Positions 11,295 through 25,570 of a DNA stretch of 64,000 nt are shown here, one piece after another. The notes beneath the pieces were generated by a model. It did no database searches and was not told where the DNA came from. It saw only the letters and a program-made list of their open reading frames with translations. The number at the start of each line of letters is the position of its first letter. Positions within the stretch are counted from its first letter, which is position 1. Made by a program: the position numbers and the translations under genes. The DNA is from Solirubrobacteraceae bacterium (lineage in GTDB: Bacteria; Actinomycetota; Thermoleophilia; Solirubrobacterales; Solirubrobacteraceae). The stretch spans positions 1 to 64,000 of the forward strand of contig JAUJOT010000002.1 of NCBI GenBank assembly GCA_030447505.1. The letters run 5' to 3'.

Positions 11295-11876
11295 TCAGCC
11301 GTCATGGAGCTCTTCGTGAGGCGGCAGCAAACCCAGGTCCTGCAGACGCCGGATCTCGGCCTCGTCGTGCAGGCGTGCGCGACGCTCAGTCTCCTCGGCC
11401 GTGAGCGATAGGTGCTCGATGTCGAGCTCTGCCCACGTGCGCCCGCGCACGACAAACTGAGCGGTGACTTCGATCCTGCAGGGGCTGGAGGCATCGACGT
11501 CCTGTAAGAGCCCCCCGCCGTGCTCCTCGCCCTCAACGCGACCGGAGAACGCGTCGAGGTCGTTACTCGAGAGCTTTGACACGTGCCAATGGACGTTGCC
11601 GTGCCCCTCGATGGTCGCCACGACGTCGTAGGAGGCCGACGGGCGGTCTTCGTCGCCCACGTAGGCCTCGCGGATAACTGGCGGCCCGTCGACGACGAAG
11701 TCGTGGAGCTTGGCGTCTTCCAGCTCGCCCTCCAGGTAGTCCTCGGGCGTGAACTCGTCGAACGGCCACCCACGAGCGTTGACGAGCCGTTCGACCCGTC
11801 GGCCGAGCTTCGTCAATGCCCCATTGGGGAGCCAGTTGTACGGCGGACTGAGCCGGTCGCCCGCTCGGCTGGCCAT
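11295..11876 (-). CDS. Unknown protein, last gene of the nucleotidyltransferase operon
   Basis: A 193-aa soluble acidic protein, ATG at 11876 sharing one base with the stop of the preceding membrane-protein gene (TGATG), so it is translationally coupled. Visible segments: PYNWLPNGALTKLGRRVERL, WPFDEFTPEDYLEGELEDA, then beta-rich stretches (YDVVATIEGHGNVHWHVSKL, IEVTAQFVVRGRTWAELDIE) and a charged C-terminal helix. No family recognised. Its constant coupling with a nucleotidyltransferase and a TM protein suggests a role in the same system. Confidence 0.65.
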   Translation of the reverse strand: MASRAGDRLSPPYNWLPNGALTKLGRRVERLVNARGWPFDEFTPEDYLEGELEDAKLHDFVVDGPPVIREAYVGDEDRPSASYDVVATIEGHGNVHWHVSKLSSNDLDAFSGRVEGEEHGGGLLQDVDASSPCRIEVTAQFVVRGRTWAELDIEHLSLTAEETERRARLHDEAEIRRLQDLGLLPPHEELHDG

Positions 11877-12519: not shown

Positions 12520-13990
12520 AGAGTTGTCCCGTAGCTCGTAGAACTTCGTAGGACGGCGGTCCCTCCCGCCGCGTCCGCTGCCGTTGGCAGCGTTCGCGGT
12601 GATCCGCCAAAGATCGAGGAGGAACCGCCATGAAGACCGTATCGGTCGCGCAGGCCGCGACCGCGCAGGAGGGCGTGTTGCCCGCGCGCGTGCAGGAAGC
12701 GCTCGGCGAGCTCGTCGGCGCCGCGAAGGAAGGACTGTTGGCGCTGAGCGTCGGCGTCGGCCTCGGCGTGCTCGCCGAGTTGATGGAAGAAGAGGTCGAT
12801 GAGGTCGTCGGGCCGAAGGGCCGCCACGACCCTGATCGCAGCGCGGTGCGTCACGGCCGCGAGGACGGCAGCGTGACGCTCGGCGGCCGGCGCGTCCCGG
12901 TTCAACGGCCGCGCGTGCGTAGCGCCGACGACAGCGAGGAGGTGGCCTTGAAGACGTACGCGCACTTCGCCGACCGTGACGCCCTGACAGCTGTCGTGCT
13001 CGAGCGGATGCTCGCCGGCGTGAGCACGCGCCGCTACGCGCGCACGCAGGAGCCCGTCGGCGAGGAGGTCGAGCAGGCGTCGCGGTCGACATCGAAGTCC
13101 GCGGTCTCGCGGGCGTTCGTGGCGCGCACGAGCGAGCGCCTGGGCGAGCTGATGGCGCGTCGCCTGGACGACATCCGCCTCGCGGTGCTGATGCTTGACG
13201 GCATCGATCTGAAGGGCCGCTGCAACGTCGTCGCGCTCGGTGTCACGACGCAGGGCGTGAAGATCCCGCTCGGCCTGTGGGAAGGATCAACCGAGAACGC
13301 CGCCGTCGCGACCGCGCTGCTCGCAGACCTCGTCGACCGCGGTCTGAATGTCGGTCAGGGCGTGCTCTGCGTCCTCGACGGCGCCAAGGCGCTGCGCAAA
13401 GCGGTCCGCGACGTGCTCGGCGCCGACACGCCGGTGCAGCGCTGTATCCGTCACAAGGAACGCAACGTCCTCGATCACCTGCCCGAGCGCGATCGTCCGC
13501 CCGTCAAGCGCCGGCTGCGGGCGGCGTGGAAGCTTGACGATCACGCTGCAGCGCTCGAGCGGCTGCAGGCGCTCGCCGACGAGCTCGCGCGCTCACACCC
13601 GGGTGCCGCGGCGTCGCTGCGTGAGGGCATCGCCGAGACGCTGACAGTGACCAGGCTCGGGATTCGCGGCGCGCTCAAGCGCACGCTCGAGTCCACGAAC
13701 CCGTGCGAGTCGATGATCGAGTGCGTGCGTCGCACCAGCCGCAACGTCAAGCACTGGCAGTCCGGCGACATGGCGCTGCGCTGGACGGCCGCGGGCATGC
13801 TCGAAGCCGAGCAGCAGTTTCGCCGTGTGATCGGCTACCGCGATCTCGCCAAGCTCGCCGTCGCCGTCGAGCGCGACCTGACCGCCAACGTTCCTTCACC
13901 GACCGCCGAGGAGGCCGCTACGCTCGTCACCGCCTGACCACCACCCACTGGACCGTCGTCGAGAAGTTCCACGACGAGCGGGACATCCTC
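12520..13990 (+). mobile_element. IS256-family insertion sequence, complete, 1471 bp
   Basis: Bounded by a perfect 9-bp direct repeat CGTGAGGAC at 12511-12519 and 13991-13999. The ends are imperfect inverted repeats: left AGAGTTGTCCCGTAGCTCGT, right (reverse complement) GAGGATGTCCCGCTCGTCGT, and they continue into a shared GAACTTC. Over 28 bp 19 positions match. It carries one transposase gene (12630-13937). The target duplication length, element size and transposase all fit the IS256/mutator family. It sits in the second gene of the nucleotidyltransferase operon in the opposite orientation. Confidence 0.92.
12630..13937 (+). CDS. IS256-family transposase
   Basis: A 435-aa DDE transposase of the mutator type. 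ATG at 12630 preceded by GAGGAGGAACCGCC. The catalytic core includes LAVLMLDGIDLKGRCNVVALG (first Asp near residue 190), GVLCVLDGAKALRKAVRDVL (second Asp near 248) and ESTNPCESMIECVRRTSRNV (Glu near residue 353). CIRHKERNVLDHL, between the second Asp and the Glu, is also typical. Full length with no frameshift, so the element may still be active. Confidence 0.93.
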   Translation: MKTVSVAQAATAQEGVLPARVQEALGELVGAAKEGLLALSVGVGLGVLAELMEEEVDEVVGPKGRHDPDRSAVRHGREDGSVTLGGRRVPVQRPRVRSADDSEEVALKTYAHFADRDALTAVVLERMLAGVSTRRYARTQEPVGEEVEQASRSTSKSAVSRAFVARTSERLGELMARRLDDIRLAVLMLDGIDLKGRCNVVALGVTTQGVKIPLGLWEGSTENAAVATALLADLVDRGLNVGQGVLCVLDGAKALRKAVRDVLGADTPVQRCIRHKERNVLDHLPERDRPPVKRRLRAAWKLDDHAAALERLQALADELARSHPGAAASLREGIAETLTVTRLGIRGALKRTLESTNPCESMIECVRRTSRNVKHWQSGDMALRWTAAGMLEAEQQFRRVIGYRDLAKLAVAVERDLTANVPSPTAEEAATLVTA

Positions 13991-14345: not shown

Positions 14346-15098
14346 TCATCGGCGAGCGGCATCGTGCTTCAGCGCGCCGATGAGCTCATGCGCCGCCCCG
14401 ACCGCCGCCTCGGCCTTCGGTCGGCGGTCACGGTACGGGAATGGCAGCGGCTCGTGGACGTCGCGGTCGGCGAGCACGAAGAACGGTCGTAGGCGCGCGA
14501 TGCACTCGGTCGCCGGGCGGAGGTCGGGCCACTCGTCGGCGACGCGCGCCAGCGCCTTGCGCGCCGAGAACTCGAAGACTCCGCGCTGGCCGAGCAGCGC
14601 GTAGGCGGCCGCACGTCCGGTCGAGTAGCAGTCGGCGAGGCAGTACAGGTACAGGCCCTGGCACCAGTCGAGGTCGTCGTAGAGTTCGATGCGGCGATGC
14701 AGCGCCGTGGGATCGGCCCGCACCGGCGCGTCCGGCGAGTGCTGCGCGCGCAGCCGCGCGAACCGGTCGCCCTCGTCGTGGACGATGACCGCCTCGCGCA
14801 GCACATGTACCGCGAACGTCGACCGGTCGCTGAGGATCTCGGCCAGGCGCGCCTCGTCGAGGACCTTCGTCTGGACCTTGCCCGTCTGGGCATTGCGCGC
14901 GGCGAGCGCGCGCAGGGCCCGACGCCGGACGTCCTTGACGTGGCTGCGGGCGTCGACCATCGCGAGCAGGTCGATGTCGCTGTCCGGCTCGGAGTCGCCC
15001 CGCGCCGTACTGCCGAGCAGGCACACGGACCGGACGTGGTCCAGATCCGCCAAGCGGTCAGCGAGATCGAGCGCCGCCAAGTCGACGGTCGCGGTCAT
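14346..15098 (-). CDS. Nucleotidyltransferase-domain protein heading a four-gene operon
   Basis: A 250-aa protein with a pol-beta-type nucleotidyltransferase fold at its N-terminus: the active-site signature GSTARGDSEPDSDIDLLAM has Gly29-Ser30 and the metal-binding pair Asp41/Asp43. Residues 110-250 are helical (ELYDDLDWCQGLYLYCLADC, RPATECIARLRPFF), giving a kanamycin-NTase-like or HEPN-like second domain. The layout fits a MNT/minimal NTase; transfer of AMP or another nucleotide to protein, RNA or small molecules is possible. It is the first gene of a chain of overlapping genes ending at 11295 that includes a TM protein, typical of conflict or defence operons. The specific role is inference. 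Confidence 0.8.
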   Translation of the reverse strand: MTATVDLAALDLADRLADLDHVRSVCLLGSTARGDSEPDSDIDLLAMVDARSHVKDVRRRALRALAARNAQTGKVQTKVLDEARLAEILSDRSTFAVHVLREAVIVHDEGDRFARLRAQHSPDAPVRADPTALHRRIELYDDLDWCQGLYLYCLADCYSTGRAAAYALLGQRGVFEFSARKALARVADEWPDLRPATECIARLRPFFVLADRDVHEPLPFPYRDRRPKAEAAVGAAHELIGALKHDAARR

Positions 15099-15130: not shown

Positions 15131-15432
15131 ATGCGCAATGAGTCTGACCTCATCCGAGTGCGAACGAAGGAGAGGATGCACGTCGCCAAGGCCCAAGGGC
15201 GCCTGCGTGGGAGACAGCCGAGGCTCAACCCGCGCCAGGAAGCGCATCTCGTCACGTTGCACCGCGCTGGTCACCACGCACCGCAGACGTCAGCGATCTG
15301 TGCGGCATCGGACGCTCTACCGTATACCGAGTCATGAACGCGACGCGCGAGTCCGCAGAGCGGGAGCTCCGCCAACGCAAGCTCCTCGCCTCGAATAGCG
15401 GAACCTCAACCGGGACCAATGCCGGCTCCTAG
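15131..15432 (+). pseudogene. Serine resolvase/invertase C-terminal relic
   Basis: Only the end of the catalytic domain and the DNA-binding tail remain: ESDLIRVRTKERMHVAKAQG, then RLRGRQPRLNPRQEAHLVTL, and after a frameshift near 15280 the helix-turn-helix TADVSDLCGIGRSTVYRVMN, ending at TAG 15430-15432. The N-terminal serine-recombinase core is absent. It lies 4 bp outside the left target duplication of the Tn3 element, so it belongs to an older element into which, or next to which, the transposon inserted. Confidence 0.8.
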
Positions 15433-15435
15433 CGC

Positions 15436-15440
15436 GATGT
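15436..15440. repeat. Left target-site duplication GATGT of the Tn3 element
   Basis: GATGT directly before the left terminal repeat; an identical GATGT follows the right terminal repeat at 25241-25245. A 5-bp duplication is the rule for Tn3-family transposition. Confidence 0.88.
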
Positions 15441-15483
15441 GGGGTCGACTGTGTAGTCGGGCGAAAGCGGCGAACTGCGTTAG
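15441..15483 (+). repeat. Left terminal inverted repeat (IRL) of the Tn3-family transposon
   Basis: Starts GGGGTCGACTGTGTAGTCGG and ends CGGCGAACTGCGTTAG. The right end reads inward GGGGCCGACTGAGTAATCGG ... CGGCGAGCTGCGTTAG. The outer 20 positions match at 17 and the inner 16 at 15; the left copy has 4 more bases in the middle. GGGG at the tip and GTTAG at the inner edge are typical of Tn3-family ends. Confidence 0.9.
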
Positions 15484-15790
15484 TGGAAGAGGCAGCACGG
15501 GGTCTCGCGGGGCGAGCCACGGGCCTGGATCAGGACGAGTTCGCGCGGTTGCTGGGGATGCTCGATCGGCGTACCACTGGGGCAAGCGTGACCTGGCGTT
15601 GTTGCACCTGCTCGGCTCGGCCGGCGTGGCGGCGCGCCGAGGCCGACTTGCTGGTGAGCGACGTCGACGAGCGTCGCCGCTCCAGCGTCCCTCGCCTGCG
15701 CGCGGCGATGGCGCGGTCGACGAGCTGGTGGGTGGCCCTCCGCTGCGGTAGGCGCGGCCGCACCCGCGCGGTGTGGCTGTCTTTCCCCCC
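15483..15790 (+). pseudogene. Tyrosine integrase fragment just inside the left Tn3 end
   Basis: Degenerate core of an Xer-type recombinase split over two frames: LDQDEFARLLGMLDRRT near 15525, GKRDLALLHLLGSAGV near 15590, then RRAEADLLVSDVDERRR and a later STSWWVALRCGRRGRTRAVW near 15720-15780. The second block resembles the region around the first catalytic Arg, but the HxxR and Tyr box are missing. It is unlike tnpI at 19974, so a different recombinase was lost here. From 15791 to 16100 I see no gene. Confidence 0.65.
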
Positions 15791-16100
15791 GGGTATGTGG
15801 TCACGCGACGACGCCCGGATCTGACTGTCGAGCGCGGGTGGAGTGGCAGCGGGCGGGGAAACGATTGGGGCGCAGGCCGGGGGGTGTGGGGGCGCCGAAT
15901 CGCAGGGTCAGCTGCTCGAGCCGGCGATCGGTGCCCGCGCTTGGAGCCGCTCTTGGGCGAGGGATTGCATGGGCGGCGGGACATCGAAGCGCGCCGCCTG
16001 GTCGAGGCGGCGGGCAGCGGCGGTCGCGGGCTGCTAAGCATCGCGAGTCTGTGCGTTCTCCCCGCCCCGTAGCCGTGTTTCGTGTGACCGCAGCGACGCG

Positions 16101-16637
16101 GTGGTAGTTCGGGCCAGTGATCGGTTCCTTGTCGGGGCGGCGCAGGCGGGCGATCTTCACGCGTTCGAGGCGCTGGTCGGCCGCCATCAGGGTGCCGTCT
16201 ATCGGGTGGCGTTGCGGATGCTGGGCTCTAAGGTCGATGCCGAGGACGCCGCGCAGGACGCGCTGGTGCAGGCGTGGCGGGCGCTGTCTACGTTTCGGGG
16301 GGAGAGCGAGTTTTCGACGTGGCTGTATCGGATCGTGACCAACCGTTGCCTCAAGGCCCGGGCCGCCCGGCATCCCATGGAGGCGCTGCCTGAGGTGCTG
16401 ATCGACCGCGGCAGTGACCCAGCCGAGGCGCTGGCGCAGAGCGAGCGGCTGCGTGCGCTGGCGCGTGGGGTGCTGGCGTTGCCGGCCGAGCAGCGCGCTG
16501 CGCTGGTGTTGCGTGAGCTGGAGGGCTTGTCCTATGAACAGATCGCCCAGGCCCTGGGAGTGACCGTGCCGGCGGTCAAGGGTCGTATTCACCGCGCTCG
16601 CCTCGGGCTGCTGAAAGCGAGTGCCACGTGGCGGTGA
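16101..16637 (+). CDS. ECF-type RNA polymerase sigma factor
   Basis: A 178-aa sigma-70 family protein with only regions 2 and 4. Region 2 (about residues 10-85) includes DAEDAAQDALVQAWRALSTF and FSTWLYRIVTNRCLKARA (-10 binding). Region 4 (about 122-172) includes LPAEQRAALVLRELEGLSYE and the helix-turn-helix IAQALGVTVPAVKGRIHRAR (-35 binding). GTG start at 16101. It is the first gene of a seven-gene operon and overlaps the next gene, a Zn-type anti-sigma/Asp23 fusion, by 10 bp, the usual arrangement of a sigma and its regulator. It probably drives its own operon under envelope stress. Confidence 0.92.
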   Translation: MVVRASDRFLVGAAQAGDLHAFEALVGRHQGAVYRVALRMLGSKVDAEDAAQDALVQAWRALSTFRGESEFSTWLYRIVTNRCLKARAARHPMEALPEVLIDRGSDPAEALAQSERLRALARGVLALPAEQRAALVLRELEGLSYEQIAQALGVTVPAVKGRIHRARLGLLKASATWR

Positions 16638-17176
16638 CCGACCCGCCTGAGCGGCTGTCGTGCGGCACCCAGCTTGCGGCGCTGATCACCCAGGTCGCCG
16701 ACGGCGCCCCCGCCATCGACCCGGCGCACCAAGCCGAGTGCCCGTACTGTCAGGCGTCGCTCGGGCGCATCCGCGAGCTGTGGAGCGACGTTCGGGCCTT
16801 GGCCGACGAGCCGGTGCGCGCGCCGCGCGGTCTGCTGGACGAGGTCATGGCCCGCCTCAGCGGGCCCGCCGGCGCCGTGACCCTGCGCGACGCGACCCGG
16901 GGCCACACCCAGGTCAGCGAGGCGGTGCTCGCCGGCGTCGCCCGCCGGATCGCCGAGGCGATGCCCGCGGTGGCATTCGCGTCGGTCTTGGCGCATGCCG
17001 CCGGGCCGGGAACGGTCGCCCTGCGCGTGCGACTCGTGGTCGCCTACGGACCTTCGCTTCCCGTCCTGGCCGCCGCGGTGCGCGAGCAGATCGTCATACA
17101 CGTGCGGCGCCTAACGGACGTGCAGGTGACCGAGGTCGAGCTGTCGGTCGACGACCTCGCCGCTCCTGACACCTAG
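16628..17176 (+). CDS. Zinc anti-sigma (ZAS-like) N-domain fused to an Asp23/Gls24 domain
   Basis: A 182-aa protein, GTG start at 16628 inside the sigma gene. Residues 10-70 resemble a zinc-associated anti-sigma domain: His34, Cys38 and Cys41 in PAHQAECPYCQ give exactly H-x3-C-x2-C. Residues about 75-180 are an Asp23/Gls24 domain (VSEAVLAGVARRIAEAMPAV, LRVRLVVAYGPSLPVLAAAV, VTEVELSVDDL). No TM segment, so attachment to the membrane would have to come from the AmaP-like proteins encoded downstream. I infer that it holds the ECF sigma factor inactive; the fusion links sigma control directly to the Asp23 complex. Confidence 0.8.
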   Translation: MAVTDPPERLSCGTQLAALITQVADGAPAIDPAHQAECPYCQASLGRIRELWSDVRALADEPVRAPRGLLDEVMARLSGPAGAVTLRDATRGHTQVSEAVLAGVARRIAEAMPAVAFASVLAHAAGPGTVALRVRLVVAYGPSLPVLAAAVREQIVIHVRRLTDVQVTEVELSVDDLAAPDT

Positions 17177-17273
17177 GCCCACGATATTGCGCAGAACTTT
17201 TCCTCGCCGACGCGATCGAACTATATGAACGCACGCTCCCGCGATCGGCGGGACCGTCCTCGAGGAGGCCATG

Positions 17274-17774
17274 ATGAGCGAACCCCAGTCCCCCAGCACC
17301 CCCGGCCGACCCGGAGCGGCCAGCGAGCCGGCCGAGGCGTCCTCGAAGGCGATGTCGCGGCGCGGCAACGAGCAGCTGAGCTCCGAGCTCGGCTCGACCA
17401 CGATCGCCGACGCGGTCGTTACCAAGATCGCGAGCATCGCCGCGCGGGAGGTGCGCGGCGTGTATGACCTCGGCGGTGGAACGGCGCGGGCGATCGGGGG
17501 GATGACACGGAGCGTTGGCATCGGTGGGATCGGTGTTGACGAGCGCATGCAGGGCGTCGCGGTGGAGCTCGGCGAGCGCGAGGCGGCGGTCGACCTCACG
17601 GTGGTGGTCGAGTACGGCGAGTCGATCCCGCAGATCGCCAAGACCCTGCGCGAGAACATCACCCGTCGCATCGAGGGCATGACCGGCCTGACGGTCACCG
17701 AGGTCAACATCGCCGTCAACGACCTCTACTTCCCCGGCGACGAGACGGCGGCCGAGCCGGCGCGCGTCGAGTAG
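17274..17774 (+). CDS. Asp23/Gls24 family envelope stress protein
   Basis: A 166-aa protein; of two adjacent ATGs (17271, 17274) either may be used, with CGAGGAGG just upstream. After a disordered Ser/Pro/Ala N-terminus (1-45), the Asp23 domain runs from TTIADAVVTKIASIAAREVR to LTVTEVNIAVNDLYFPGD, including AVDLTVVVEYGESIPQIAKT. Asp23 proteins form membrane-associated assemblies recruited by AmaP. It follows the anti-sigma fusion in the same operon. Confidence 0.9.
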   Translation: MSEPQSPSTPGRPGAASEPAEASSKAMSRRGNEQLSSELGSTTIADAVVTKIASIAAREVRGVYDLGGGTARAIGGMTRSVGIGGIGVDERMQGVAVELGEREAAVDLTVVVEYGESIPQIAKTLRENITRRIEGMTGLTVTEVNIAVNDLYFPGDETAAEPARVE

Positions 17775-17792
17775 CCCGGTCACAGCGCGGCC

Positions 17793-18194
17793 GTGTCATC
17801 TGCCGTTCCGAGCGCCGGTGCGACGACCATGCCGGTCTCCTCGCCCGCCGAGGTCCCGGCCTCGGCGTCGGTGCGCCTGCGTCTGGCCGCCCACGCGCGT
17901 GCAGCCGCGCTCGCCACTCGCGGCGTTCTCGGGCTCGACGCCGGGCGGACGGGCATGTGCATGACGGCCAGCGCGGGCCTGCGCGTCGACGGAGTGGTGT
18001 GCGCGGCGCTGCCCGACGGGCGCTACCAGGTGTCCGTCCACATCGTCGCCGCGATGGTCGCGCTGCGCCCGTTGGCCGACGCCGTCCGGGCGCGCGTCGA
18101 ACGCGACGTCGCGATTGCGGGCCTGGCCGACCGGCTCGGTCCGGTAGATGTCGCCGTGGAGGACGTCCAGGGCCGAACGGAGGCGCGCCCGTGA
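17793..18194 (+). CDS. Asp23-related protein
   Basis: A 133-aa protein from GTG 17793, 18 bp after the Asp23 gene. It has the layout of a degenerate Asp23 domain: an N-terminal helix (LRLAAHARAAALATRGVLGL), a central strand YQVSVHIVAAMVALRPLADA and a final strand VDVAVEDVQ. Its stop overlaps the next GTG by 4 bp (GTGA). Probably a third member of the Asp23 assembly. Confidence 0.7.
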   Translation: MSSAVPSAGATTMPVSSPAEVPASASVRLRLAAHARAAALATRGVLGLDAGRTGMCMTASAGLRVDGVVCAALPDGRYQVSVHIVAAMVALRPLADAVRARVERDVAIAGLADRLGPVDVAVEDVQGRTEARP

Positions 18195-18751
18195 TCGTGC
18201 TGCTGCGCGCGCTGGTGCGACTGCTCGGGTTTCTGCTGCTCATCGCGCTCGCGCTCGTCGGTCTCGGCTTCGCGCTGGCGGCGTTGCTCGGTGACCAGCT
18301 CGGGGTGCAGCTTGAGGGCTCGGCGGCCAGCCGCTGGCTCGAGCGGCTGGAAGGCAACGACACCCAGGTCCTCGAGGCCGTCATCGGCGGCGGCATGGTC
18401 CTGCTCGGGCTGTTGTTGTTGATCGGGGCGCTGGCGCCGCGCCGTGAACGCCGCGCCGTGCTCGAGCAGGGCGAGCACGGAACGCTCGACGCGCGCCGGC
18501 GCCCACTGACGCAGATGTTCACGGCGCTCGCCGAGCGCACCCGCGGCGTCACGCACGCCAAGGCGAAGCTGCGCCTCGGCCGGCAAGCGCGCCACGGACG
18601 GCTGGTGCTGCGAGCCGAACGACCGCGCACGACGGACAGCAGCGCCGTCCGCGACGCCGTCCGATCCGACGTCGGTGAGCTGGCGGCCGCCTTCGGCCTC
18701 AAGACCCGGATCCAAGCCCCGCTCGGGCGCCACGGCCATCGCGTGCAGTGA
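18191..18751 (+). CDS. AmaP-like alkaline-shock membrane anchor protein
   Basis: A 186-aa membrane protein beginning at GTG 18191. TM1 is residues about 2-30 (LVRLLGFLLLIALALVGLGF) and TM2 about 58-82 (VIGGGMVLLGLLLLIGALAP). The C-terminal cytosolic domain (90-186) is basic and helical (LTQMFTALAERTRGVTHAKA, VRSDVGELAAAFGLKTRIQA). The two-TM plus cytosolic domain layout and position in the Asp23 operon fit AmaP, which anchors Asp23 to the membrane. Confidence 0.75.
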   Translation: MIVLLRALVRLLGFLLLIALALVGLGFALAALLGDQLGVQLEGSAASRWLERLEGNDTQVLEAVIGGGMVLLGLLLLIGALAPRRERRAVLEQGEHGTLDARRRPLTQMFTALAERTRGVTHAKAKLRLGRQARHGRLVLRAERPRTTDSSAVRDAVRSDVGELAAAFGLKTRIQAPLGRHGHRVQ

Positions 18752-19359
18752 TGTTGCGCCAGCGCCTGCGCACGCGAACCTCGCCGCTCGCCTTCATCCA
18801 GCGGCTCCTCGAGCTCGCCCTCGCATTGGCGCTGATCTGGTACGGGCTCATCCTCGCCGGCCTCGCCCTCGACGTGATCGGCCGCGCCAGCGCCGACACC
18901 TACAGCGGCTACCGCACCGCCTACGACTTCGCCGCCGACCTGCTGGCGGGTCGGGCGTCGGACAGCGCGCGGCTGATCGCCGGCATCGCCGGCCTGGTCG
19001 CCTTCCTCCTCCTGTTCACCGTCGCAATCAAGCAGCTGCCGCGCCCCTACCTCGCCCGCCATGACCTCGAGCTCGAGGCCGGCGACCGCGGCACGGTCAC
19101 CGTCGAGCCGCGCGCCGTGGAGCGCTTGGCCGAGGGCATCGCGCTCCAGCACCCCGCCGTGGCGAGCGCCTCAGGGCGCTTCGGAACCGACGACCTGGCC
19201 GTGCTGCTCGAGGTGCGCCGCGCTCGCGACCTGCCCGACACGCTGCGCACCGTCCAGCGCAGCGTCAGCAACGGCCTCGAGCGCCACGGGCTACCCACCG
19301 TCCCCGTCAACGTGACTCTGACCGGCTATGACCGCTCAAGCAAGAGGGAGCTCAACTGA
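18748..19359 (+). CDS. DUF6286/AmaP-like two-TM membrane protein
   Basis: A 203-aa protein; GTG 18748 and ATG 18751 are both possible and both overlap the preceding stop. TM1 about residues 20-47 (LALALALIWYGLILAGLALD), TM2 about 78-100 (LIAGIAGLVAFLLLFTVAIK). The cytosolic domain 105-200 has an alternating strand/helix layout (GTVTVEPRAVERLAEGIALQ, LAVLLEVRRARDLPDTLRTV, VPVNVTLTGYD) much like an Asp23/AmaP C-domain. It is the second membrane anchor in this operon. Confidence 0.75.
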   Translation: MMLRQRLRTRTSPLAFIQRLLELALALALIWYGLILAGLALDVIGRASADTYSGYRTAYDFAADLLAGRASDSARLIAGIAGLVAFLLLFTVAIKQLPRPYLARHDLELEAGDRGTVTVEPRAVERLAEGIALQHPAVASASGRFGTDDLAVLLEVRRARDLPDTLRTVQRSVSNGLERHGLPTVPVNVTLTGYDRSSKRELN

Positions 19360-19360
19360 C

Positions 19361-19588
19361 ATGACCCCCAGACAATTCGCCGCCCTGCTCGGCTTCCTCT
19401 TCGCCGCCGCGTGGATCGGCTTCGGCCTCGGCGAAGCCATACTCTGCCTGGTCGGCGCCGGCGTTTTCACCGCCCTGCTCTACGCAGGCGAAGGCTTCCT
19501 CCGCGGCGACATCGACCTCGGCGAACTCCAAACCCGCGTGACCAACCGCCCGAACGCCAGCCGCGGCCCGGCTCCCCGCGCGCGCTGA
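19361..19588 (+). CDS. Small DUF2273-like membrane protein
   Basis: A 75-aa protein, ATG at 19361 with AGAGGGAG upstream; the frame is open earlier but the signal favours this start. Two close hydrophobic segments (FAALLGFLFAAAWIGFGLGE and ILCLVGAGVFTALLYAGEGF) are followed by a charged tail with GDIDLGELQTRV. DUF2273 proteins of this size regularly accompany Asp23. It closes the seven-gene operon. Confidence 0.7.
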   Translation: MTPRQFAALLGFLFAAAWIGFGLGEAILCLVGAGVFTALLYAGEGFLRGDIDLGELQTRVTNRPNASRGPAPRAR

Positions 19589-19973
19589 GCGGCCTGCCAT
19601 ACGCCAAGCGCCAGGGCATGATCGAGCCGGCCTTCGCCGACGCTCAGTTCAACCGACACCGCAACCGCCGCCTACGGCGCGGCAGATCCGTCGCTCGCTC
19701 AGAGCGCAGACGTAGCACGGCGACGCCCAGGGGCTCAAGCTCTGGCGGCACACCACCGCGCCGACACCGGCCTGAGCCGCGCCAGGCGCGGGCGGCGCGC
19801 TTCCGCGAACGCGCTTCTCGCCCATCTGGCCGCCCACCCCCCGACCCGCGCCACGTCGCCGCCTTACCCAACAGCCTCGACGAGATGCAGCAGCAGCGCA
19901 CAGGCGACCCGGCGCTTCTTCTAAGTGCGTTTAGACGAACGATCCGTCCGGCCGGGGATCTACTAATGCGCAC
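19589..19973. other. Intergenic region before tnpI; candidate internal resolution region
   Basis: About 385 bp without a supportable gene. It separates the stress operon from tnpI and is where Tn4430-type elements keep the TnpI target site. It contains the palindrome at 19941-19960 and the segment TGCGTTTAGACGAAC at 19926-19940, which resembles the inner edge of the right terminal repeat (TGCGTTAGACGAAG on that strand). Confidence 0.45.
19941..19960. promoter_or_regulatory. Imperfect palindrome upstream of tnpI
   Basis: GATCCGTCCGGCCGGGGATC, 13 bp before the tnpI ATG, is symmetric around CCGG with one mismatched pair. Its size and place suggest either the core crossover site for the tyrosine recombinase or an operator for the tnpI-tnpA-apeA transcript. 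No experimental analogue is claimed. Confidence 0.4.
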
Positions 19974-20903
19974 ATGGACCCTGCCCAGCCGCCGGATACC
20001 GCTTCGACTAACACGCGCGGCTCGCACGGAGATGCCGCCCGCGGCGCCCTCGGGCGCTATCTCGACGATCTAGCTGGCCAGCCGCTTGCGGCACGCACCC
20101 GCCAAGCGTACGCCGCGCACGTGTCGACCTATGTCGACTGGCTCGCCGAACGCCCGGAAGCCGGCGCGGCGTTGCGCGAGCCTCGAGCGCGAGACTTCGC
20201 CGGTCGGGACTTCAAGCGCTATCTGAAGGTCGAGCGTGGCTGGGCGCCGAGCTCGGTGAACCTCGCGCTTGCCGCGACCGATCACTTCAACCGCTTCCTC
20301 GGCCTCGGGCCCGCCGTCGTCACGCGCGAGCGCCTCGCGCAGTCCGCACCCCGCGCGCTGGATGAAGACCAGCAGCGCGATCTCGTCCGCGCCGCCGAGC
20401 AAGTCTCGCCACGCGACCGCGCGATCGTCGTGCTGCTACTGCACACCGCGCTGCGTCTGTCGGAGCTCGTCGCGCTGGACGTGGGTGATGTCCGCACTTC
20501 GGCGCGCAAGGGCGTCGTGGTCGTGCGCTCGGGCAAGGGTGATACGTACCGCGAGGTGCCGCTGAACCCGACCGCGCGCGCCGTCGTCGACGCGTGGCAC
20601 AAGGAGCGCGCGAAGGTCGTCGCTGAGGATGAGCCGGCGCTGCTGGTCGGCCGCGGTGGGGGGCGCCTTACCCCGCGCGCGGTTGATCTCGTGGTGCGGA
20701 AGGTCGCGCGCGCCGCGGGGCTCGAGCTGTCGGCGCACGTGCTGCGCCACACGTGCATCACCAAGCTCGTGCGCAAGGGCAGCGACGTCGTGCTCGTCGC
20801 CGAGCTCGCCGGCCACCGACGTTTGGAGACCACGCGCCGCTACAGCCTGCCCTCCCAAGCCGATCGGCAGCTGGCGATGGACGGCCTGGAGGTTGAGGAC
20901 TGA
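19974..20903 (+). CDS. tnpI: Tyrosine recombinase (TnpI-type resolvase of the Tn3 element)
   Basis: A 309-aa phage-integrase family protein. The N-terminal SAM-like DNA-binding domain spans about 25-125 (LAARTRQAYAAHVSTYVDWL). The catalytic domain holds Arg near 160 (HTALRLSELVALDVGD), Lys in the beta-hairpin (VVRSGKGDTYREVPLN), H-x-x-R near 256-259 (HVLRHTCITKLV), His near 281 (ELAGHRRLETTRRY) and the nucleophilic Tyr near 290. All catalytic residues are present, so it should be active. Its stop shares one base with the tnpA start. It probably resolves cointegrates made by TnpA. Confidence 0.9.
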   Translation: MDPAQPPDTASTNTRGSHGDAARGALGRYLDDLAGQPLAARTRQAYAAHVSTYVDWLAERPEAGAALREPRARDFAGRDFKRYLKVERGWAPSSVNLALAATDHFNRFLGLGPAVVTRERLAQSAPRALDEDQQRDLVRAAEQVSPRDRAIVVLLLHTALRLSELVALDVGDVRTSARKGVVVVRSGKGDTYREVPLNPTARAVVDAWHKERAKVVAEDEPALLVGRGGGRLTPRAVDLVVRKVARAAGLELSAHVLRHTCITKLVRKGSDVVLVAELAGHRRLETTRRYSLPSQADRQLAMDGLEVED

Positions 20904-23890
20904 TGGCGCGCAGCATCCTCAGCGACGCCGAGCGCCTCGCCTGGGAGCGCTTCCCGCAAGACCCCGACCCGGACGTCATCGGCGTGTACTTCACGCTCGC
21001 CGACGGCGAGGTCGACGATCTGCGTCGCCTGCCGACACCGGCGGGCCGGCTGGCGACCGCGATCGCCATCGCGGCGATCCGCTGGCTGGGGTTCGTCCCG
21101 GTCGAGCTCGACCTCGCCCCGAGCGCGGGCGTTCAGCGGCTCGCAGACCAGCTCGATGTCGATGCGGAGGCGGTCGCGGCGTACGAGCCGCCCGAGCGCA
21201 CCGGGCGCGAGCATCGCCAACGCGCGACAGATCTGGCGCACTTCCGCGACGCCGATGCGCGCGACGTCGACGACGTCGAGGATCTCCTCGTCGAGCACGC
21301 GCTTGAGCACGACTCGCCGCTGGCGCTGCTGCGGACCGCGGCAATCACGCTGCGCGACCGCCAGCTGCTGCGCCCGGCGATCTCGACGCTCGAGCGGCTC
21401 GTCGCCTCCGCACGGGCCCGCGCCGAGCGCGACACCCACGAGCGCCTCGAGCCGGTGCTGCACGCGCAGACGCGGCGGGTGCTGGACGCGCTGTGCGTGA
21501 CCGACGTGCGCCTTGGCGTGAGCCGGCTGGTGTGGCTGGGCCGCGAAGCGAGATCGGCGAGTCCGGCGCAGATCGTGGGGCAGCTGGAGAAGCTCGCGTT
21601 CCTGCGCGACCTCGGCGCACCCCACTGGCAGGTTGAGGCCGTGTCCGCCAACCGGCGCCGTCAGCTCGCGGCGCTCGCACGGCGCTCGACTACGGCGGCG
21701 CTCGCTGGCCGACCGGATCGCCTTCGCTACCCCGCGCTGCTGTGCTTCTGCCACGACCAGGCCGTCCGGCTGCTCGACGAGATCCTCGACCGCGCCGACC
21801 AGGCGGTCGGCGAGGCGCACGGACAGGCACTGCGCGAACTGCGCGAGCTGAAGGCGCAGACAGCGACCGCGGCCAACGAGAAGGTCGCGCTGTTCGACTT
21901 GCTCGTCGGCCTGCTGCTCGATGACGACGTGGCCGACGATGAGGTTCGCGCGCGTGCGTGGGAGGCGATGGCCCCGGAGCGCTGGGCGGCGGCGCGCCAG
22001 CAGGCCCAGGCGATCCTGCGACCGCTGGATGACAACCACTTCGCGCAGCTCGATGGCCGCTACGCGCACCTGCGGCGCTTCGTCCCGGCGTTGATCGCGG
22101 CGCTGCGCTTCGAAGCCGTCCCGACCGCTCAGCCGCTCATCAACGCGATCGAACTACTGCGCGAGCTCGACGGCATCGGCCGGCGCGCGCTGCCCGACAC
22201 GGCAGTGACCGCGTTCGTCCCGGCCCGCTGGCGCGCGCACGTCATCGGCGACGACGGACGCCCCGATCGTCGGCGCTGGGAGCTGTGCCTGCTGTCGGAA
22301 CTGCGAACTGCGCTGCGCTCCGGTGCCGTCTGGGTGCAGGGATCGCGCCGCTACCAACCTGCCGACCGCTACCTCATCGCGGCGGCCGCGTGGCCCGCGC
22401 GACGCGACGCCGCCCGGCGCATGCTGGGGCTACCAGCATCCGCCGACGAGCGCCTCGAGCAGCTCGCCCGCGACGTCGACCAGCGTGTGTCCGCGCTCGA
22501 TCGCGCGCTCGCGACAGGCGACGTCGCTGTCGACGTCCAAGACGGCGAGCTGCACGTCCGCCGCCTCCCCGGCGCCGAGCGACCCGCCGCGACGACCGCG
22601 CTGGCAGCGCACATCGCCAGCCGGCTGCCGCAGGTCGATCTCGCCGACATCCTGATCGACGTCGACGCGTGGACCGCCTTCAGCGACGAACTCACGCACG
22701 CGCACGGCGCGACACCGCGCCAGCCGCGGCTGCACGAGCACCGCTACGCCGCGCTGCTGGCTCACGCCTGCAACCTCGGCTACGCGCGCATGGGCCAGGC
22801 CGCCCGCATCGACCCGCAGCAGCTCGCGTGGACGACGCAGTGGTACCTGCGCCCCGAGGCGCTCGCCATGGCGAACGCCCGGATCGTGAACGCGCACCAC
22901 GCGTTGCCGCTCGCACAGGAGTGGGGCGACGGGCGCTTTTCAAGCTCCGACGGCAGGCGCTACCCCGTCGGCGTCGACTCGCCCGAAGCCCGCGCGGTGT
23001 CGCGTTACTTCGGCCGCGGCCGCGGCGTGACGTTCTACGTCTGGACGTCCGATCAGCACACCCACTACGCCACTCGCGTTGTCCGCACGACCGTCCGTGA
23101 CGCGACGTACGTCCTGGACGGGATCCTGGACAACCAGACCGAGCTTCCGATCGAGAAGCACACGACCGATACCGCTGGCTACAGCGACATCATCTTCGCG
23201 CTCTTCGATCTCCTTGGCCTGCAGTTCGCGCCCCGTCTCGCCGGGCTCCCCGACCGCCGCCTGTACCGACTTGGAAAGGCTGCGCGGACACCAGCCGAGC
23301 AGCTGCTCGCCCACCCGTTGAACCTCGATGTGATCCGCGACGGCTGGGACGACCTTGTGCGCTGCGCGGCGTCGCTGCGCGACGGGACCGTGACGGCGAG
23401 CCTGCTCGTCGCGCGACTGCAGGCCGCCGGCAGCAAGCTGCCGCTCACTCGGGCGCTGCAGGAGTACGGGCGGCTCGTCAAGACGCGGTTCGTGCTCGGC
23501 TACCTGGCCGACGAGGCCGAGCGCCGCGCCATCGGCCGCCAGCAGAACAAAGGTGAGAGCCTGCACGCGCTGCACGACCGCACCTTCCACGGCAACCATG
23601 GCACCGTGCGCCTGCACACGCTCGAGCGCCAATCCACACAGGCGCACTGCCTGCATCTCGTCGCCAACGCGATCGTCTACTGGAACACGATCTACATCCA
23701 GCGCGCCCTCGACGAACTCCCGTGCCAGTCCGGCGGCGACGAGCTCGCCGGGCTCACGCCGACGCTCTTCGAGCACATCAATCCGCTCGGCACCTACGAC
23801 TTCCGCACGGACCGGCCAGCCGGAAAGCTACGACCGCTTCGCGAACAACCAATGCCGCGGGAACCTCACCGTGGAGCCGCACGAGCATGA
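20903..23890 (+). CDS. tnpA: Tn3-family transposase
   Basis: A 995-aa Tn3 transposase. An N-terminal DUF4158 DNA-binding region (about 1-165, SILSDAERLAWERFPQDPDP) precedes a long helical middle and the RNase-H-like core: Asp in LADILIDVDAW near residue 588, Asp in HTTDTAGYSDIIFALFDLLG near 756 and Glu in QQNKGESLHALHD near 884. The family C-terminal motif HINPLGTYDF is near 960. The last ~15 residues are unlike the usual ending, and the stop overlaps the ApeA start by 4 bp (ATGA), which suggests that the passenger was joined directly onto the 3' end of tnpA. Full length, apparently functional. Confidence 0.93.
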   Translation: MARSILSDAERLAWERFPQDPDPDVIGVYFTLADGEVDDLRRLPTPAGRLATAIAIAAIRWLGFVPVELDLAPSAGVQRLADQLDVDAEAVAAYEPPERTGREHRQRATDLAHFRDADARDVDDVEDLLVEHALEHDSPLALLRTAAITLRDRQLLRPAISTLERLVASARARAERDTHERLEPVLHAQTRRVLDALCVTDVRLGVSRLVWLGREARSASPAQIVGQLEKLAFLRDLGAPHWQVEAVSANRRRQLAALARRSTTAALAGRPDRLRYPALLCFCHDQAVRLLDEILDRADQAVGEAHGQALRELRELKAQTATAANEKVALFDLLVGLLLDDDVADDEVRARAWEAMAPERWAAARQQAQAILRPLDDNHFAQLDGRYAHLRRFVPALIAALRFEAVPTAQPLINAIELLRELDGIGRRALPDTAVTAFVPARWRAHVIGDDGRPDRRRWELCLLSELRTALRSGAVWVQGSRRYQPADRYLIAAAAWPARRDAARRMLGLPASADERLEQLARDVDQRVSALDRALATGDVAVDVQDGELHVRRLPGAERPAATTALAAHIASRLPQVDLADILIDVDAWTAFSDELTHAHGATPRQPRLHEHRYAALLAHACNLGYARMGQAARIDPQQLAWTTQWYLRPEALAMANARIVNAHHALPLAQEWGDGRFSSSDGRRYPVGVDSPEARAVSRYFGRGRGVTFYVWTSDQHTHYATRVVRTTVRDATYVLDGILDNQTELPIEKHTTDTAGYSDIIFALFDLLGLQFAPRLAGLPDRRLYRLGKAARTPAEQLLAHPLNLDVIRDGWDDLVRCAASLRDGTVTASLLVARLQAAGSKLPLTRALQEYGRLVKTRFVLGYLADEAERRAIGRQQNKGESLHALHDRTFHGNHGTVRLHTLERQSTQAHCLHLVANAIVYWNTIYIQRALDELPCQSGGDELAGLTPTLFEHINPLGTYDFRTDRPAGKLRPLREQPMPREPHRGAARA

Positions 23891-25143
23891 TCGCGTCTGA
23901 CCTGGTTTCCAGTGAGCTACACGGGACCTGGAGCCTCTTCGGCACGTCGCAGCGCGTGCGCGGGCGGTTGATTTCATCCGAGGGGCGCGAGCGACTCCAG
24001 CTCGAGGGACTGCTTCCAATTTCGTCATCAGAGCGCCACGTCACGATCGAAGGCGAGTTGCTCGATGGCCGGGCCGTCTCTCTGCTGGATTGCGATCTCG
24101 CTGCTCGACGCGTAGGCCATCCGGACCTGTACATGGACGAGTGGCATGTGGGTCGGTCGCTGCTCGGCGTCAGCGTGGCGGGCGATCAGGAGCATGCGTT
24201 TGCTCGGCTGCGCCTCGAGCTGGATGGGCTGGCAGAGGCTCTCGGCCTTTCCGGGCTGAGCGTCGCCAGCTCCGATCTGACCAGTCCCAAGCACAAGCGT
24301 GTAGCCGTCGAGTGGGAAGAACCGGCACCGATCGTCGCGCCGTTCGGCCAAGCCACGCTGACGCTTCGCTGCCACCCGAGGTTCGAAGCGGTGTCCGACT
24401 TCGAGTTCCGACTCACGAACCGCGCAGTAGCTGACGTGACGCCCCACACCCCGATCAGCCTCGACGATGTCGGCCGCTTGGTCGATGACTTGATGAGCCT
24501 AGTGGCGCTAGCAACCGAGGCCGCCGGCGGTGTCTCACAACTGACCCTTCAGCCATGTTCGGGCGACCTCGATGTCGTCGTGAGCACCGCCGGCCGCCCC
24601 TGGTACGGGCCCACGCCGGCCGCCCAGGAGCCCCGATTGACGCTGGCGCAACTCGGCGCCGACGCCCCACGCTTCGTCGAAGCCTTCGAGCGCTTCCGGC
24701 GCGATCAGCCAGAGGCAGCCGAGCTGCTCTTCGAGTACCAGGTGTTCGCAGCCGTCATGACGCCACCGGACCGCTTCCTCTACCTGGCACGCTTCCTTGA
24801 GGCGTACCACAGACGCGATGCAGGCGTCGCATCGAACATCAACTTCGTAGACAGAGTCACCGCGCTACTTGAGGGCCCGGGAGCAGCCGCTCAACGGGCG
24901 TTCGGCGCACCCGCCTTGGAGCTCGCCAAGACGATCCGCGACACCCGCAACTATTACGTTCACTACGACCCCAGGAAGCGAGCCAGGGCGCGTCATGACG
25001 TGCCACTCGATGACCTGGCCGATCGCGTCTGGTGTGCAGTCCGCAGTGTCCTTCTCAGCGACCTCGGACTAAGCGCCGCGACGATCCAGGCCGTCCTCCA
25101 AGGCGACTGGCGCTTTCAACGAGCTACCGAAGCACCGCTGTGA
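23887..25143 (+). CDS. apeA: ApeA-like HEPN-domain antiphage protein
   Basis: A 418-aa protein, ATG at 23887. The N-terminal ~230 residues match the layout of the ApeA N-terminal domain: SELHGTWSLFGTSQRVRGRL, then ITIEG-type strands (HVTIEGELLDGRAVSLLDCD) and PIVAPFGQATLTLRCHPRFE. The C-terminal ~170 residues are a HEPN-type helical domain with FEYQVFAAVMTPPDRFLYLA and the RNase motif R-x4-H in TRNYYVHYDP near residue 361. ApeA proteins are single-gene phage defence factors thought to act by RNA cleavage and abortive infection. Here it is a transposon passenger between tnpA and the right terminal repeat. Homology is by motif reading, not by search. Confidence 0.75.
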   Translation: MIASDLVSSELHGTWSLFGTSQRVRGRLISSEGRERLQLEGLLPISSSERHVTIEGELLDGRAVSLLDCDLAARRVGHPDLYMDEWHVGRSLLGVSVAGDQEHAFARLRLELDGLAEALGLSGLSVASSDLTSPKHKRVAVEWEEPAPIVAPFGQATLTLRCHPRFEAVSDFEFRLTNRAVADVTPHTPISLDDVGRLVDDLMSLVALATEAAGGVSQLTLQPCSGDLDVVVSTAGRPWYGPTPAAQEPRLTLAQLGADAPRFVEAFERFRRDQPEAAELLFEYQVFAAVMTPPDRFLYLARFLEAYHRRDAGVASNINFVDRVTALLEGPGAAAQRAFGAPALELAKTIRDTRNYYVHYDPRKRARARHDVPLDDLADRVWCAVRSVLLSDLGLSAATIQAVLQGDWRFQRATEAPL

Positions 25144-25168
25144 TCGCCGCCCTACAGCCTGACCACTT

Positions 25169-25196
25169 GTTCATGCGTGTAGCCGCGGGCATGAAC
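25169..25196 (+). terminator. Perfect 8-bp inverted repeat after apeA
   Basis: GTTCATGC, a 12-nt loop, then GCATGAAC, 26 bp after the apeA stop and 6 bp before the right terminal repeat. It could terminate the tnpI-tnpA-apeA transcript at the transposon end, or be a protein-binding site. Confidence 0.45.
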
Positions 25197-25201
25197 TTCG
25201 T

Positions 25202-25240
25202 CTAACGCAGCTCGCCGATTCCGATTACTCAGTCGGCCCC
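25202..25240 (-). repeat. Right terminal inverted repeat (IRR) of the Tn3-family transposon
   Basis: Read from outside (minus strand) it begins GGGGCCGACTGAGTAATCGG and ends CGGCGAGCTGCGTTAG, matching the left end as described for 15441-15483. It is followed by the GATGT duplication at 25241-25245. Confidence 0.9.
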
Positions 25241-25245
25241 GATGT
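25241..25245. repeat. Right target-site duplication GATGT of the Tn3 element
   Basis: Identical to 15436-15440 on the far side of the element. Confidence 0.88.
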
Positions 25246-25570
25246 GTCAGTCTCAGCCATATCTCCGCCGGGAGCTCGGCTGTTGCGTCCGACGTATCGT
25301 TCGACTCGCGGTCTGCCGTCTAGCCGCTGTCGCGCAGGCCGCGCAGGCAGGTCGCGTCGGACACTGCGACGCCGTCGTGGCGACACAGCCACGCGACTTG
25401 CGGTGCCACCACAGTTGGCCGTTTTGCCGCCGTTACTCAGACGACCCCTCCAGCGGCGAACCCGGTGATCAGGGGCTCAGCGCCCTACTTGGCACTTGGT
25501 GCCACGCGGCACCCGGGAGAGGGAGAAACCAAGAGGTTCCCTCTCCAACCGGCCTCGGCGAGTCGGTTTC
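25246..25570. other. Intergenic region right of the transposon
   Basis: About 325 bp with no supportable gene and no clear hairpin or tRNA; it follows the transposon and precedes the 3' end of the MMPL gene on the opposite strand. It is the pre-insertion continuation of the sequence that ends at 15435. Confidence 0.5.

What the first reader, a model, noticed from the sequence alone, without database searches (positions are those of the whole stretch)
15436..25245. Complete 9.8-kb Tn3-family transposon with matched ends and GATGT target duplication carrying stress and defence cargo
Seen directly: GGGG-tipped terminal repeats (outer 20 bases match at 17, inner 16 at 15), a 5-bp duplication GATGT on both sides, tnpI and tnpA inside, and two unrelated passengers (sigma/Asp23 operon; ApeA-like gene). 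Tn3 family members are known mainly for resistance and catabolic cargo; an envelope-stress sigma system as cargo is, to my knowledge, not described.
Basis: partly seen in the sequence, partly recalled or inferred. Interest (0 to 1): 0.87.

Follow-up and report, generated by a model that had tools for sequence, protein, structure and literature searches.

The report
Tn3 transposon carrying a sigma-factor regulon
A 9.8-kb jumping gene of the Tn3 family in an uncultured actinobacterium carries a complete stress switch (a sigma factor, its probable inhibitor and the only copy in the genome of its likely target promoter) plus a probable anti-virus gene joined to the transposase gene, a kind of cargo and of Tn3 element (TnpI type) that I did not find described together.

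Summary
A 9,800-bp Tn3-family element (15441-25240) is flanked by the 5-bp repeat GATGT. Its ends are confirmed independently. The TnpI half-site CTTCnnCTAA occurs exactly four times in the 64 kb (0.13 expected): at the inner edge of each terminal repeat and twice in the resolution site before tnpI. tnpI and tnpA are intact; TnpA keeps the Tn4430 DDE residues. The layout is that of Tn5401 and Tn4430, the rare TnpI subgroup known from Bacillus.

Cargo, left: ECF sigma, a zinc-motif Asp23 protein (probable anti-sigma), and an asp2/DUF6286 operon. The promoter motif before asp2 is the only exact copy in the 3.84-Mb genome. In relatives it occurs in all 7 operon loci with this sigma plus one with the anti-sigma alone, and in none of 15 others. 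So the element carries a self-contained sigma regulon. Cargo, right: an ApeA-like HEPN gene overlapping the tnpA stop (ATGA); a genome of another family has the same tnpA-apeA pair.

Limits: no empty site or second copy was found; the flanks are mobile-element debris; the two ends differ (38/49 identical). Sigma-Asp23 pairs are known (ECF286/ECF292) and occur on plasmids. New variant of a known kind.

The parts
15436..15440 (.). left copy of target duplication GATGT
   Evidence: sequence
15441..15489 (+). IRL, 49 bp, ending in TnpI half-site TTAGTGGAAG (15480-15489)
16101..16637 (+). ECF sigma factor (Sigma70 r2 + r4)
   Evidence: Pfam
16628..17176 (+). asp1: N-terminal helices with zinc-type motif HxxxCxxC (HQAECPYC) + C-terminal Asp23 domain; probable soluble anti-sigma, overlaps the sigma stop
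   Evidence: Pfam; motif kept in L074, L075, L127, L131, L132 and L140; single-sequence AF2 model of low confidence
17193..17220 (+). ECF-type promoter AGAACTTT-N15-TCGAA in front of asp2; only exact match in the genome
17271..17774 (+). asp2, Asp23 family
   Evidence: Pfam E 7e-27
17793..18194 (+). p4, conserved operon gene, no family
18191..18751 (+). p5, DUF6286 / AmaP-like membrane protein (both below the curated cut-offs)
18748..19359 (+). p6, weakly AmaP-like membrane protein
19328..19588 (+). p7, small conserved last gene of the operon
19915..19940 (+). core of the resolution site (IRS): IR1 CTTCTTCTAA / 6-bp spacer / IR2 TTAGACGAAC
19957..19966 (+). IRS DR1 GATCTACTAA
   Evidence: same spacing in L039, L083, L045
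20002..20011 (+). IRS DR2 CTTCGACTAA
19974..20903 (+). tnpI tyrosine recombinase (start codon uncertain; DR2 lies inside this frame)
   Evidence: Phage_integrase E 4e-32; conserved R-K-H/R-H-Y motifs
20903..23890 (+). tnpA, 995 aa, Tn3 transposase with D683, D756, E885
   Evidence: Pfam, NCBIfam and Tn4430 alignment
23887..25143 (+). apeA-like gene: ApeA_NTD1 + HEPN_Apea, RNYYVH motif; ATG overlaps the tnpA stop (ATGA)
25196..25240 (-). IRR, 45 bp, ending in TnpI half-site TTAGACGAAG (reads CTTCGTCTAA at 25196-25205 on +)
25241..25245 (.). right copy of target duplication GATGT
   Evidence: sequence

Best explanation
15441-25240 is a TnpI-type (Tn4430/Tn5401-like) Tn3-family transposon. TnpA would copy it by replicative transposition between IRL and IRR, making 5-bp duplications; TnpI would resolve the cointegrate at IR1-IR2, helped by DR1/DR2, and would also bind half-sites at both ends as in Tn5401. 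Its left cargo is a portable envelope-stress regulon: an ECF sigma held by a soluble zinc-motif/Asp23 anti-sigma and released by an unknown cytoplasmic or membrane signal, driving one promoter (17193) that makes Asp23 and its membrane partners. Its right cargo is an ApeA-like HEPN nuclease gene translated with tnpA, probably an abortive anti-phage gene. Shown from sequence: anatomy, ends, duplication, intact genes, single promoter copy, conserved co-occurrence. Inferred: activity of TnpA/TnpI, the anti-sigma role, the promoter's use, anti-phage function.
For: TSD and IRs. Four-and-only-four TnpI half-sites at both ends and the IRS; IRS layout and spacing conserved upstream of tnpI in relatives. 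Same kind of end with a half-site 70-90 bp downstream of tnpA in L041, L036 and L039, and on both ends of a 1.66-kb mini-element with its own TSD in the same genome. TnpA vs Tn4430 (PDB 7qd4) 484 bits with the DDE residues kept. tnpA-apeA pair at 79% apeA identity in a genome of another family. Single promoter match in the genome and co-occurrence 8/8 vs 0/15 with the sigma/anti-sigma pair or the anti-sigma. The operon occurs in 24 of 232 genomes of the order and is absent from 5 of 6 genus-mates; in its host the only copy is inside the element.
Against: No second copy of the whole element and no empty site were found. IRL and IRR are only 38/49 identical and differ by 4 bp in spacing, whereas the complete relative L045 has identical ends; the element may be a hybrid or no longer active. 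Only one genome carries this combination, in a metagenome-type assembly. The p5/p6 family hits are below the curated cut-offs.
Confidence: 0.85

Rival explanations
1. The two repeats are ends of different, related Tn3 elements that happen to bracket the region; the sigma operon is host DNA between them and never moved with tnpA.
For: IRL is as similar to ends of other elements (38-40 matches) as to IRR (38/49); a solo Tn3 end lies 208 bp further right and a recombinase remnant on the left, so this site collects fragments.
Against: Identical 5-bp flanks outside both ends (about 1 in 1000 by chance) and half-sites at both inner edges. The operon is absent from 5 of 6 genus-mates.
Confidence: 0.1
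2. A real but dead transposon: it inserted once with its cargo and is now fixed, the sigma operon being kept as an ordinary host stress operon.
For: Unequal ends, no second copy in the genome, long branch of the operon with no close kin.
Against: All ten genes, including tnpI and tnpA with catalytic residues, are open; the TSD is still perfect.
Confidence: 0.4
3. Assembly artefact joining a transposon to unrelated contigs.
For: Assembly in 13 contigs; repeats are where assemblies break.
Against: The element is internal to a 648-kb contig, single copy, and the TSD and half-sites would not arise from a misjoin.
Confidence: 0.03

Closest known systems
Tn4430 / Tn5401 / TnBth4 (TnpI subgroup of the Tn3 family, Bacillus)
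   Same: tnpI-tnpA colinear; IRS with IR1-IR2 core plus DR1, DR2 just upstream of tnpI; in Tn5401 a TnpI site near each end (PMC7157771); TnpA alignable nearly end to end with Tn4430
   Different: Actinobacterial host; carries a sigma regulon and apeA, whereas Tn4430 has no known passengers and Tn5401/TnBth4 only a toxin-antitoxin pair (PMC7157771); half-site CTTCnnCTAA; unequal ends
Tn of G118:C595 (L045, complete, 5.85 kb, identical ends)
   Same: TnpI type, IRS with the same spacing, GGGGTCG-type ends with a half-site
   Different: tnpA only about 38% identical; perfect ends; no sigma or apeA match in it
ECF286 / ECF292 sigma factors with soluble Asp23 anti-sigmas (PMC8999054)
   Same: sigma next to a soluble Asp23-family protein
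   Different: here the Asp23 protein also bears an HxxxCxxC motif; group assignment was not tested
ApeA / PDC-S58 (HEPN anti-phage genes)
   Same: ApeA_NTD1 and HEPN_Apea domains, RxxxxH motif
   Different: joined to tnpA inside a transposon; only one close relative (80%) among 232 genomes of the order
[quoted passage not shown]
   Same: the same genome holds a 1.66-kb Tn3-ended element of this IR family without tnpA
   Different: that mini-element is a side observation, not the finding

Membership tests
Tn3 family | large DDE transposase of the Tn3 type | tested here: met
   Pfam DDE_Tnp_Tn3 E 3e-127, NCBIfam transpos_Tn3 848 bits vs cut-off 500; D683/D756/E885 align with Tn4430
Tn3 family | terminal inverted repeats starting GGGG, about 38 bp or longer | tested here: met
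   49/45-bp ends, 38/49 identical
Tn3 family | 5-bp target duplication | tested here: met
   GATGT on both sides; 1/300 shuffles as good
Tn3 family | replicative transposition via cointegrate | not testable with these tools
   needs a bench assay; no second copy in the genome
TnpI (Tn4430/Tn5401) subgroup | tyrosine recombinase TnpI colinear with and upstream of tnpA | tested here: met
   tnpI 19974-20903, Phage_integrase E 4e-32
TnpI (Tn4430/Tn5401) subgroup | IRS with IR1-IR2 core and DR1, DR2 next to tnpI | tested here: met
   19915-20011; spacing 42 and 45 bp as in L039, L083 and (41, 46) L045
TnpI (Tn4430/Tn5401) subgroup | TnpI site near each transposon end (Tn5401) | tested here: met
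   exact CTTCnnCTAA at 15480-15489 and 25196-25205
TnpI (Tn4430/Tn5401) subgroup | TnpA phylogenetic placement with Tn4430/Tn5401 | not tested
   only pairwise similarity to Tn4430; no family tree was built
ECF sigma with Asp23 anti-sigma (ECF286/ECF292) | ECF sigma adjacent to a soluble Asp23-family gene | tested here: met
   16101-17176
ECF sigma with Asp23 anti-sigma (ECF286/ECF292) | membership by the ECF group models | not testable with these tools
   ECF group models not available
ApeA anti-phage genes | ApeA N-terminal domain and HEPN domain with RxxxxH | tested here: met
   Pfam both above cut-off, RNYYVH at aa 354
ApeA anti-phage genes | protects against phage | not testable with these tools
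   bench test needed

The most novel reading that the evidence does not exclude
The element couples host stress to its own spread: the mobile sigma factor drives its one promoter, and the transcript, with no terminator found after p7 and all genes in the same direction, runs into the IRS-tnpI-tnpA-apeA unit, so envelope stress would raise transposition and the ApeA defence together.
Probability: 0.15. Interest if true: 0.8.

Novelty: new variant of a known kind. Interest (0 to 1): 0.56.

Why it matters
Only 3 of 190 catalogued Tn3 members had TnpI (PMC7157771), with no cargo or only toxin-antitoxin genes. This shows a TnpI-type lineage in Solirubrobacterales with real cargo. The cargo is a regulatory circuit (sigma, inhibitor, and the only exact copy of its promoter), not a resistance or catabolic gene. 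Because the regulon appears to consist of one promoter that travels with the sigma, the circuit can be tested in isolation, and it gives a clean case of how an alternative sigma factor can spread without disturbing the host's own promoters.

Tried and rejected
Empty site: right-flank homologues align only from about 25570 (end of the MMPL gene) and left-flank homologues only over 15139-15367 (serine recombinase C-terminus); joined flanks matched nothing across the junction. Other copies: one whole-genome hit, plus degraded tnpA copies on C12. Element in plasmids: nearest TnpA 43% (Rubrobacter); Asp23 operons on Streptomyces, Dietzia, Arthrobacter and Tsukamurella plasmids have no Tn3 transposase annotated near them. 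apeA in viral contigs: none. Donor of the operon: the tree gave no supported sister. Left inner segment 15490-16100: by eye a recombinase remnant, but family, protein and DNA searches gave only noise, so not claimed. 19589-19914: by eye a transposase tail, not confirmed. Structure of asp1 from a single sequence: helical N-terminus plus alpha/beta C-terminus, pLDDT 62, too weak to search with. Literature: no paper with Asp23 + Tn3 + Actinobacteria or Solirubrobacter + transposon + Tn3 in the library; absence there is weak evidence.
Full report
Setting. The window is the first 64 kb of a 648-kb contig in a 3.84-Mb, 13-contig genome.

Ends and duplication. GATGT stands at 15436-15440 and 25241-25245, directly outside GGGG/CCCC. 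With 5-mer flanks required to match, the pair is the best in the window; 1 of 300 Markov shuffles reached 17/20 in the outer 20 bases, and the inner 16 bases match at 15 besides.

Are these the ends of the tnpA element? Three independent lines say yes. (a) Upstream of tnpI there is an IRS: CTTCTTCTAA-6 bp-TTAGACGAAC, then DR1 and DR2 at +42 and +87, with nearly the same spacing in L039, L083 and L045. Its half-site, CTTCnnCTAA, occurs exactly four times in 64 kb (0.13 expected; 0 of 100 shuffles with four): IR1, DR2 and the inner edges of IRL and IRR. (b) In relatives a GGGG end finishing in the same half-site lies about 70-90 bp after tnpA (L041, L036, L039). (c) A 1,664-bp element in the same genome (C12, L040 12123-13786) has two ends of this family, both with half-sites, and its own TSD GAGGC. 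The published description of Tn5401 (PMC7157771) is the same: irs next to tnpI and a DR2 copy close to each end.

Enzymes. TnpA: NCBIfam transpos_Tn3 at 848 bits (cut-off 500); it aligns to Tn4430 TnpA (PDB 7qd4) over residues 46-982 with D683, D756 and E885 opposite the Tn4430 DDE residues (which Tn4430 residues are catalytic is from my own knowledge). TnpI: phage-integrase family with the R, K, HxxR, H and Y motifs. Both are uninterrupted.

Left cargo. Genes: ECF sigma; asp1 (Asp23 C-terminus, HQAECPYC near the N-terminus); asp2; p4; p5; p6; p7, several overlapping. The set asp2-p7 is a chromosomal operon in 24 of 232 genomes of the order. In the nine loci checked with wide flanks no tnpA match lies nearby, and no contig carrying an asp2 match, other than the window's, also carried a tnpA match. 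In the host genome the only copy is inside the element; of six genus-mates only G002 has the operon, without the sigma. Ahead of asp2 lies AGAACTTTTCCTCGCCGACGCGATCGAA, an ECF-type -35/-10 pair. The pattern RGAACTTT-N14-17-TCNAA has one match in the whole genome, this one (control pattern 0). Among 23 order loci with the operon it is in 8 and not in 15; 7 of the 8 have this sigma (56% identity or more) nearby, the eighth (L138/L140) has the zinc-motif anti-sigma, and none of the 15 has a sigma match above 41%. I read this as a sigma dedicated to one promoter. PMC8999054 states that ECF286 and ECF292 are encoded next to soluble Asp23 proteins predicted to be anti-sigmas, so the pairing itself is known. 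Actinobacterial plasmids also carry such sets.

Right cargo. apeA starts at the ATG of ATGA that ends tnpA. It has ApeA_NTD1 and HEPN_Apea domains and RNYYVH, and hits to PADLOC PDC-S58 and Cas13-ApeA models. G172, in another family of the order, has a tnpA fragment (86% over 105 aa) followed within about 20 bp by apeA at 79%; no Tn3 end is visible after it. Thus apeA belongs to the tnpA lineage, and the sigma block is more likely the later addition (inference).

Flanks and age. Left: the C-terminal part of a serine recombinase, frameshifted, ends a few bases before the TSD. Right: a solo end at 25406-25448 matches the ends of the complete element L045 at 20/20 outer bases. The element therefore landed in mobile-element debris and no empty site could be tested. 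IRL is no closer to IRR (38/49) than to the ends of L040, L041 or L116, so the element may be a hybrid or old.

How it probably works. Shown: anatomy, one joint insertion (TSD around all cargo), intact genes. Inferred: replicative transposition and TnpI resolution by analogy to Tn4430/Tn5401; sigma held by Asp1; ApeA as an abortive nuclease. A speculative link is read-through from the sigma-driven operon into tnpI-tnpA-apeA: no terminator-like site was found between.

Verdict. A real, structurally complete TnpI-type Tn3 transposon with an unusual regulatory cargo; a new variant of a known kind. Activity is untested.

Noticed in passing
L040 12123-13786 (G000:C12, 322000-338000): 1.66-kb Tn3-ended mini-element, TSD GAGGC, TnpI half-sites at both ends, no tnpA, carrying a RelA/SpoT-domain gene (Pfam E 3e-18): a TIME-like carrier of a (p)ppGpp synthetase candidate.
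   Followed up: partly
25406-25448 (-): Solo Tn3-family terminal repeat 208 bp right of the element, of a different subgroup (matches both ends of the complete transposon L045, G118:C595).
   Followed up: partly
15139-15430: Frameshifted C-terminal remnant of a serine recombinase abutting the left target duplication; intact relative on C12 (L114).
   Followed up: partly
L039 7437-11454 (G000:C12): Second, frameshifted TnpI-type Tn3 copy in the genome, with IRR at 11454 inside what looks by eye like an hsp20 gene and IS3-like transposase genes upstream; left end not found.
   Followed up: partly
12630-13937: Intact Mutator-family (IS256-like) transposase gene left of the element; about 50-bp sequences next to its end recur at about 98-100% in three other places of the genome.
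   Followed up: no
14349-15098 (-): Stand-alone nucleotidyltransferase (NTP_transf_2) with weak matches to PADLOC candidates PDC-S09/M05A.
   Followed up: no
19589-19914: Stretch between p7 and the IRS that reads by eye like the tail of a degenerate transposase; Pfam and plasmid searches found nothing.
   Followed up: partly
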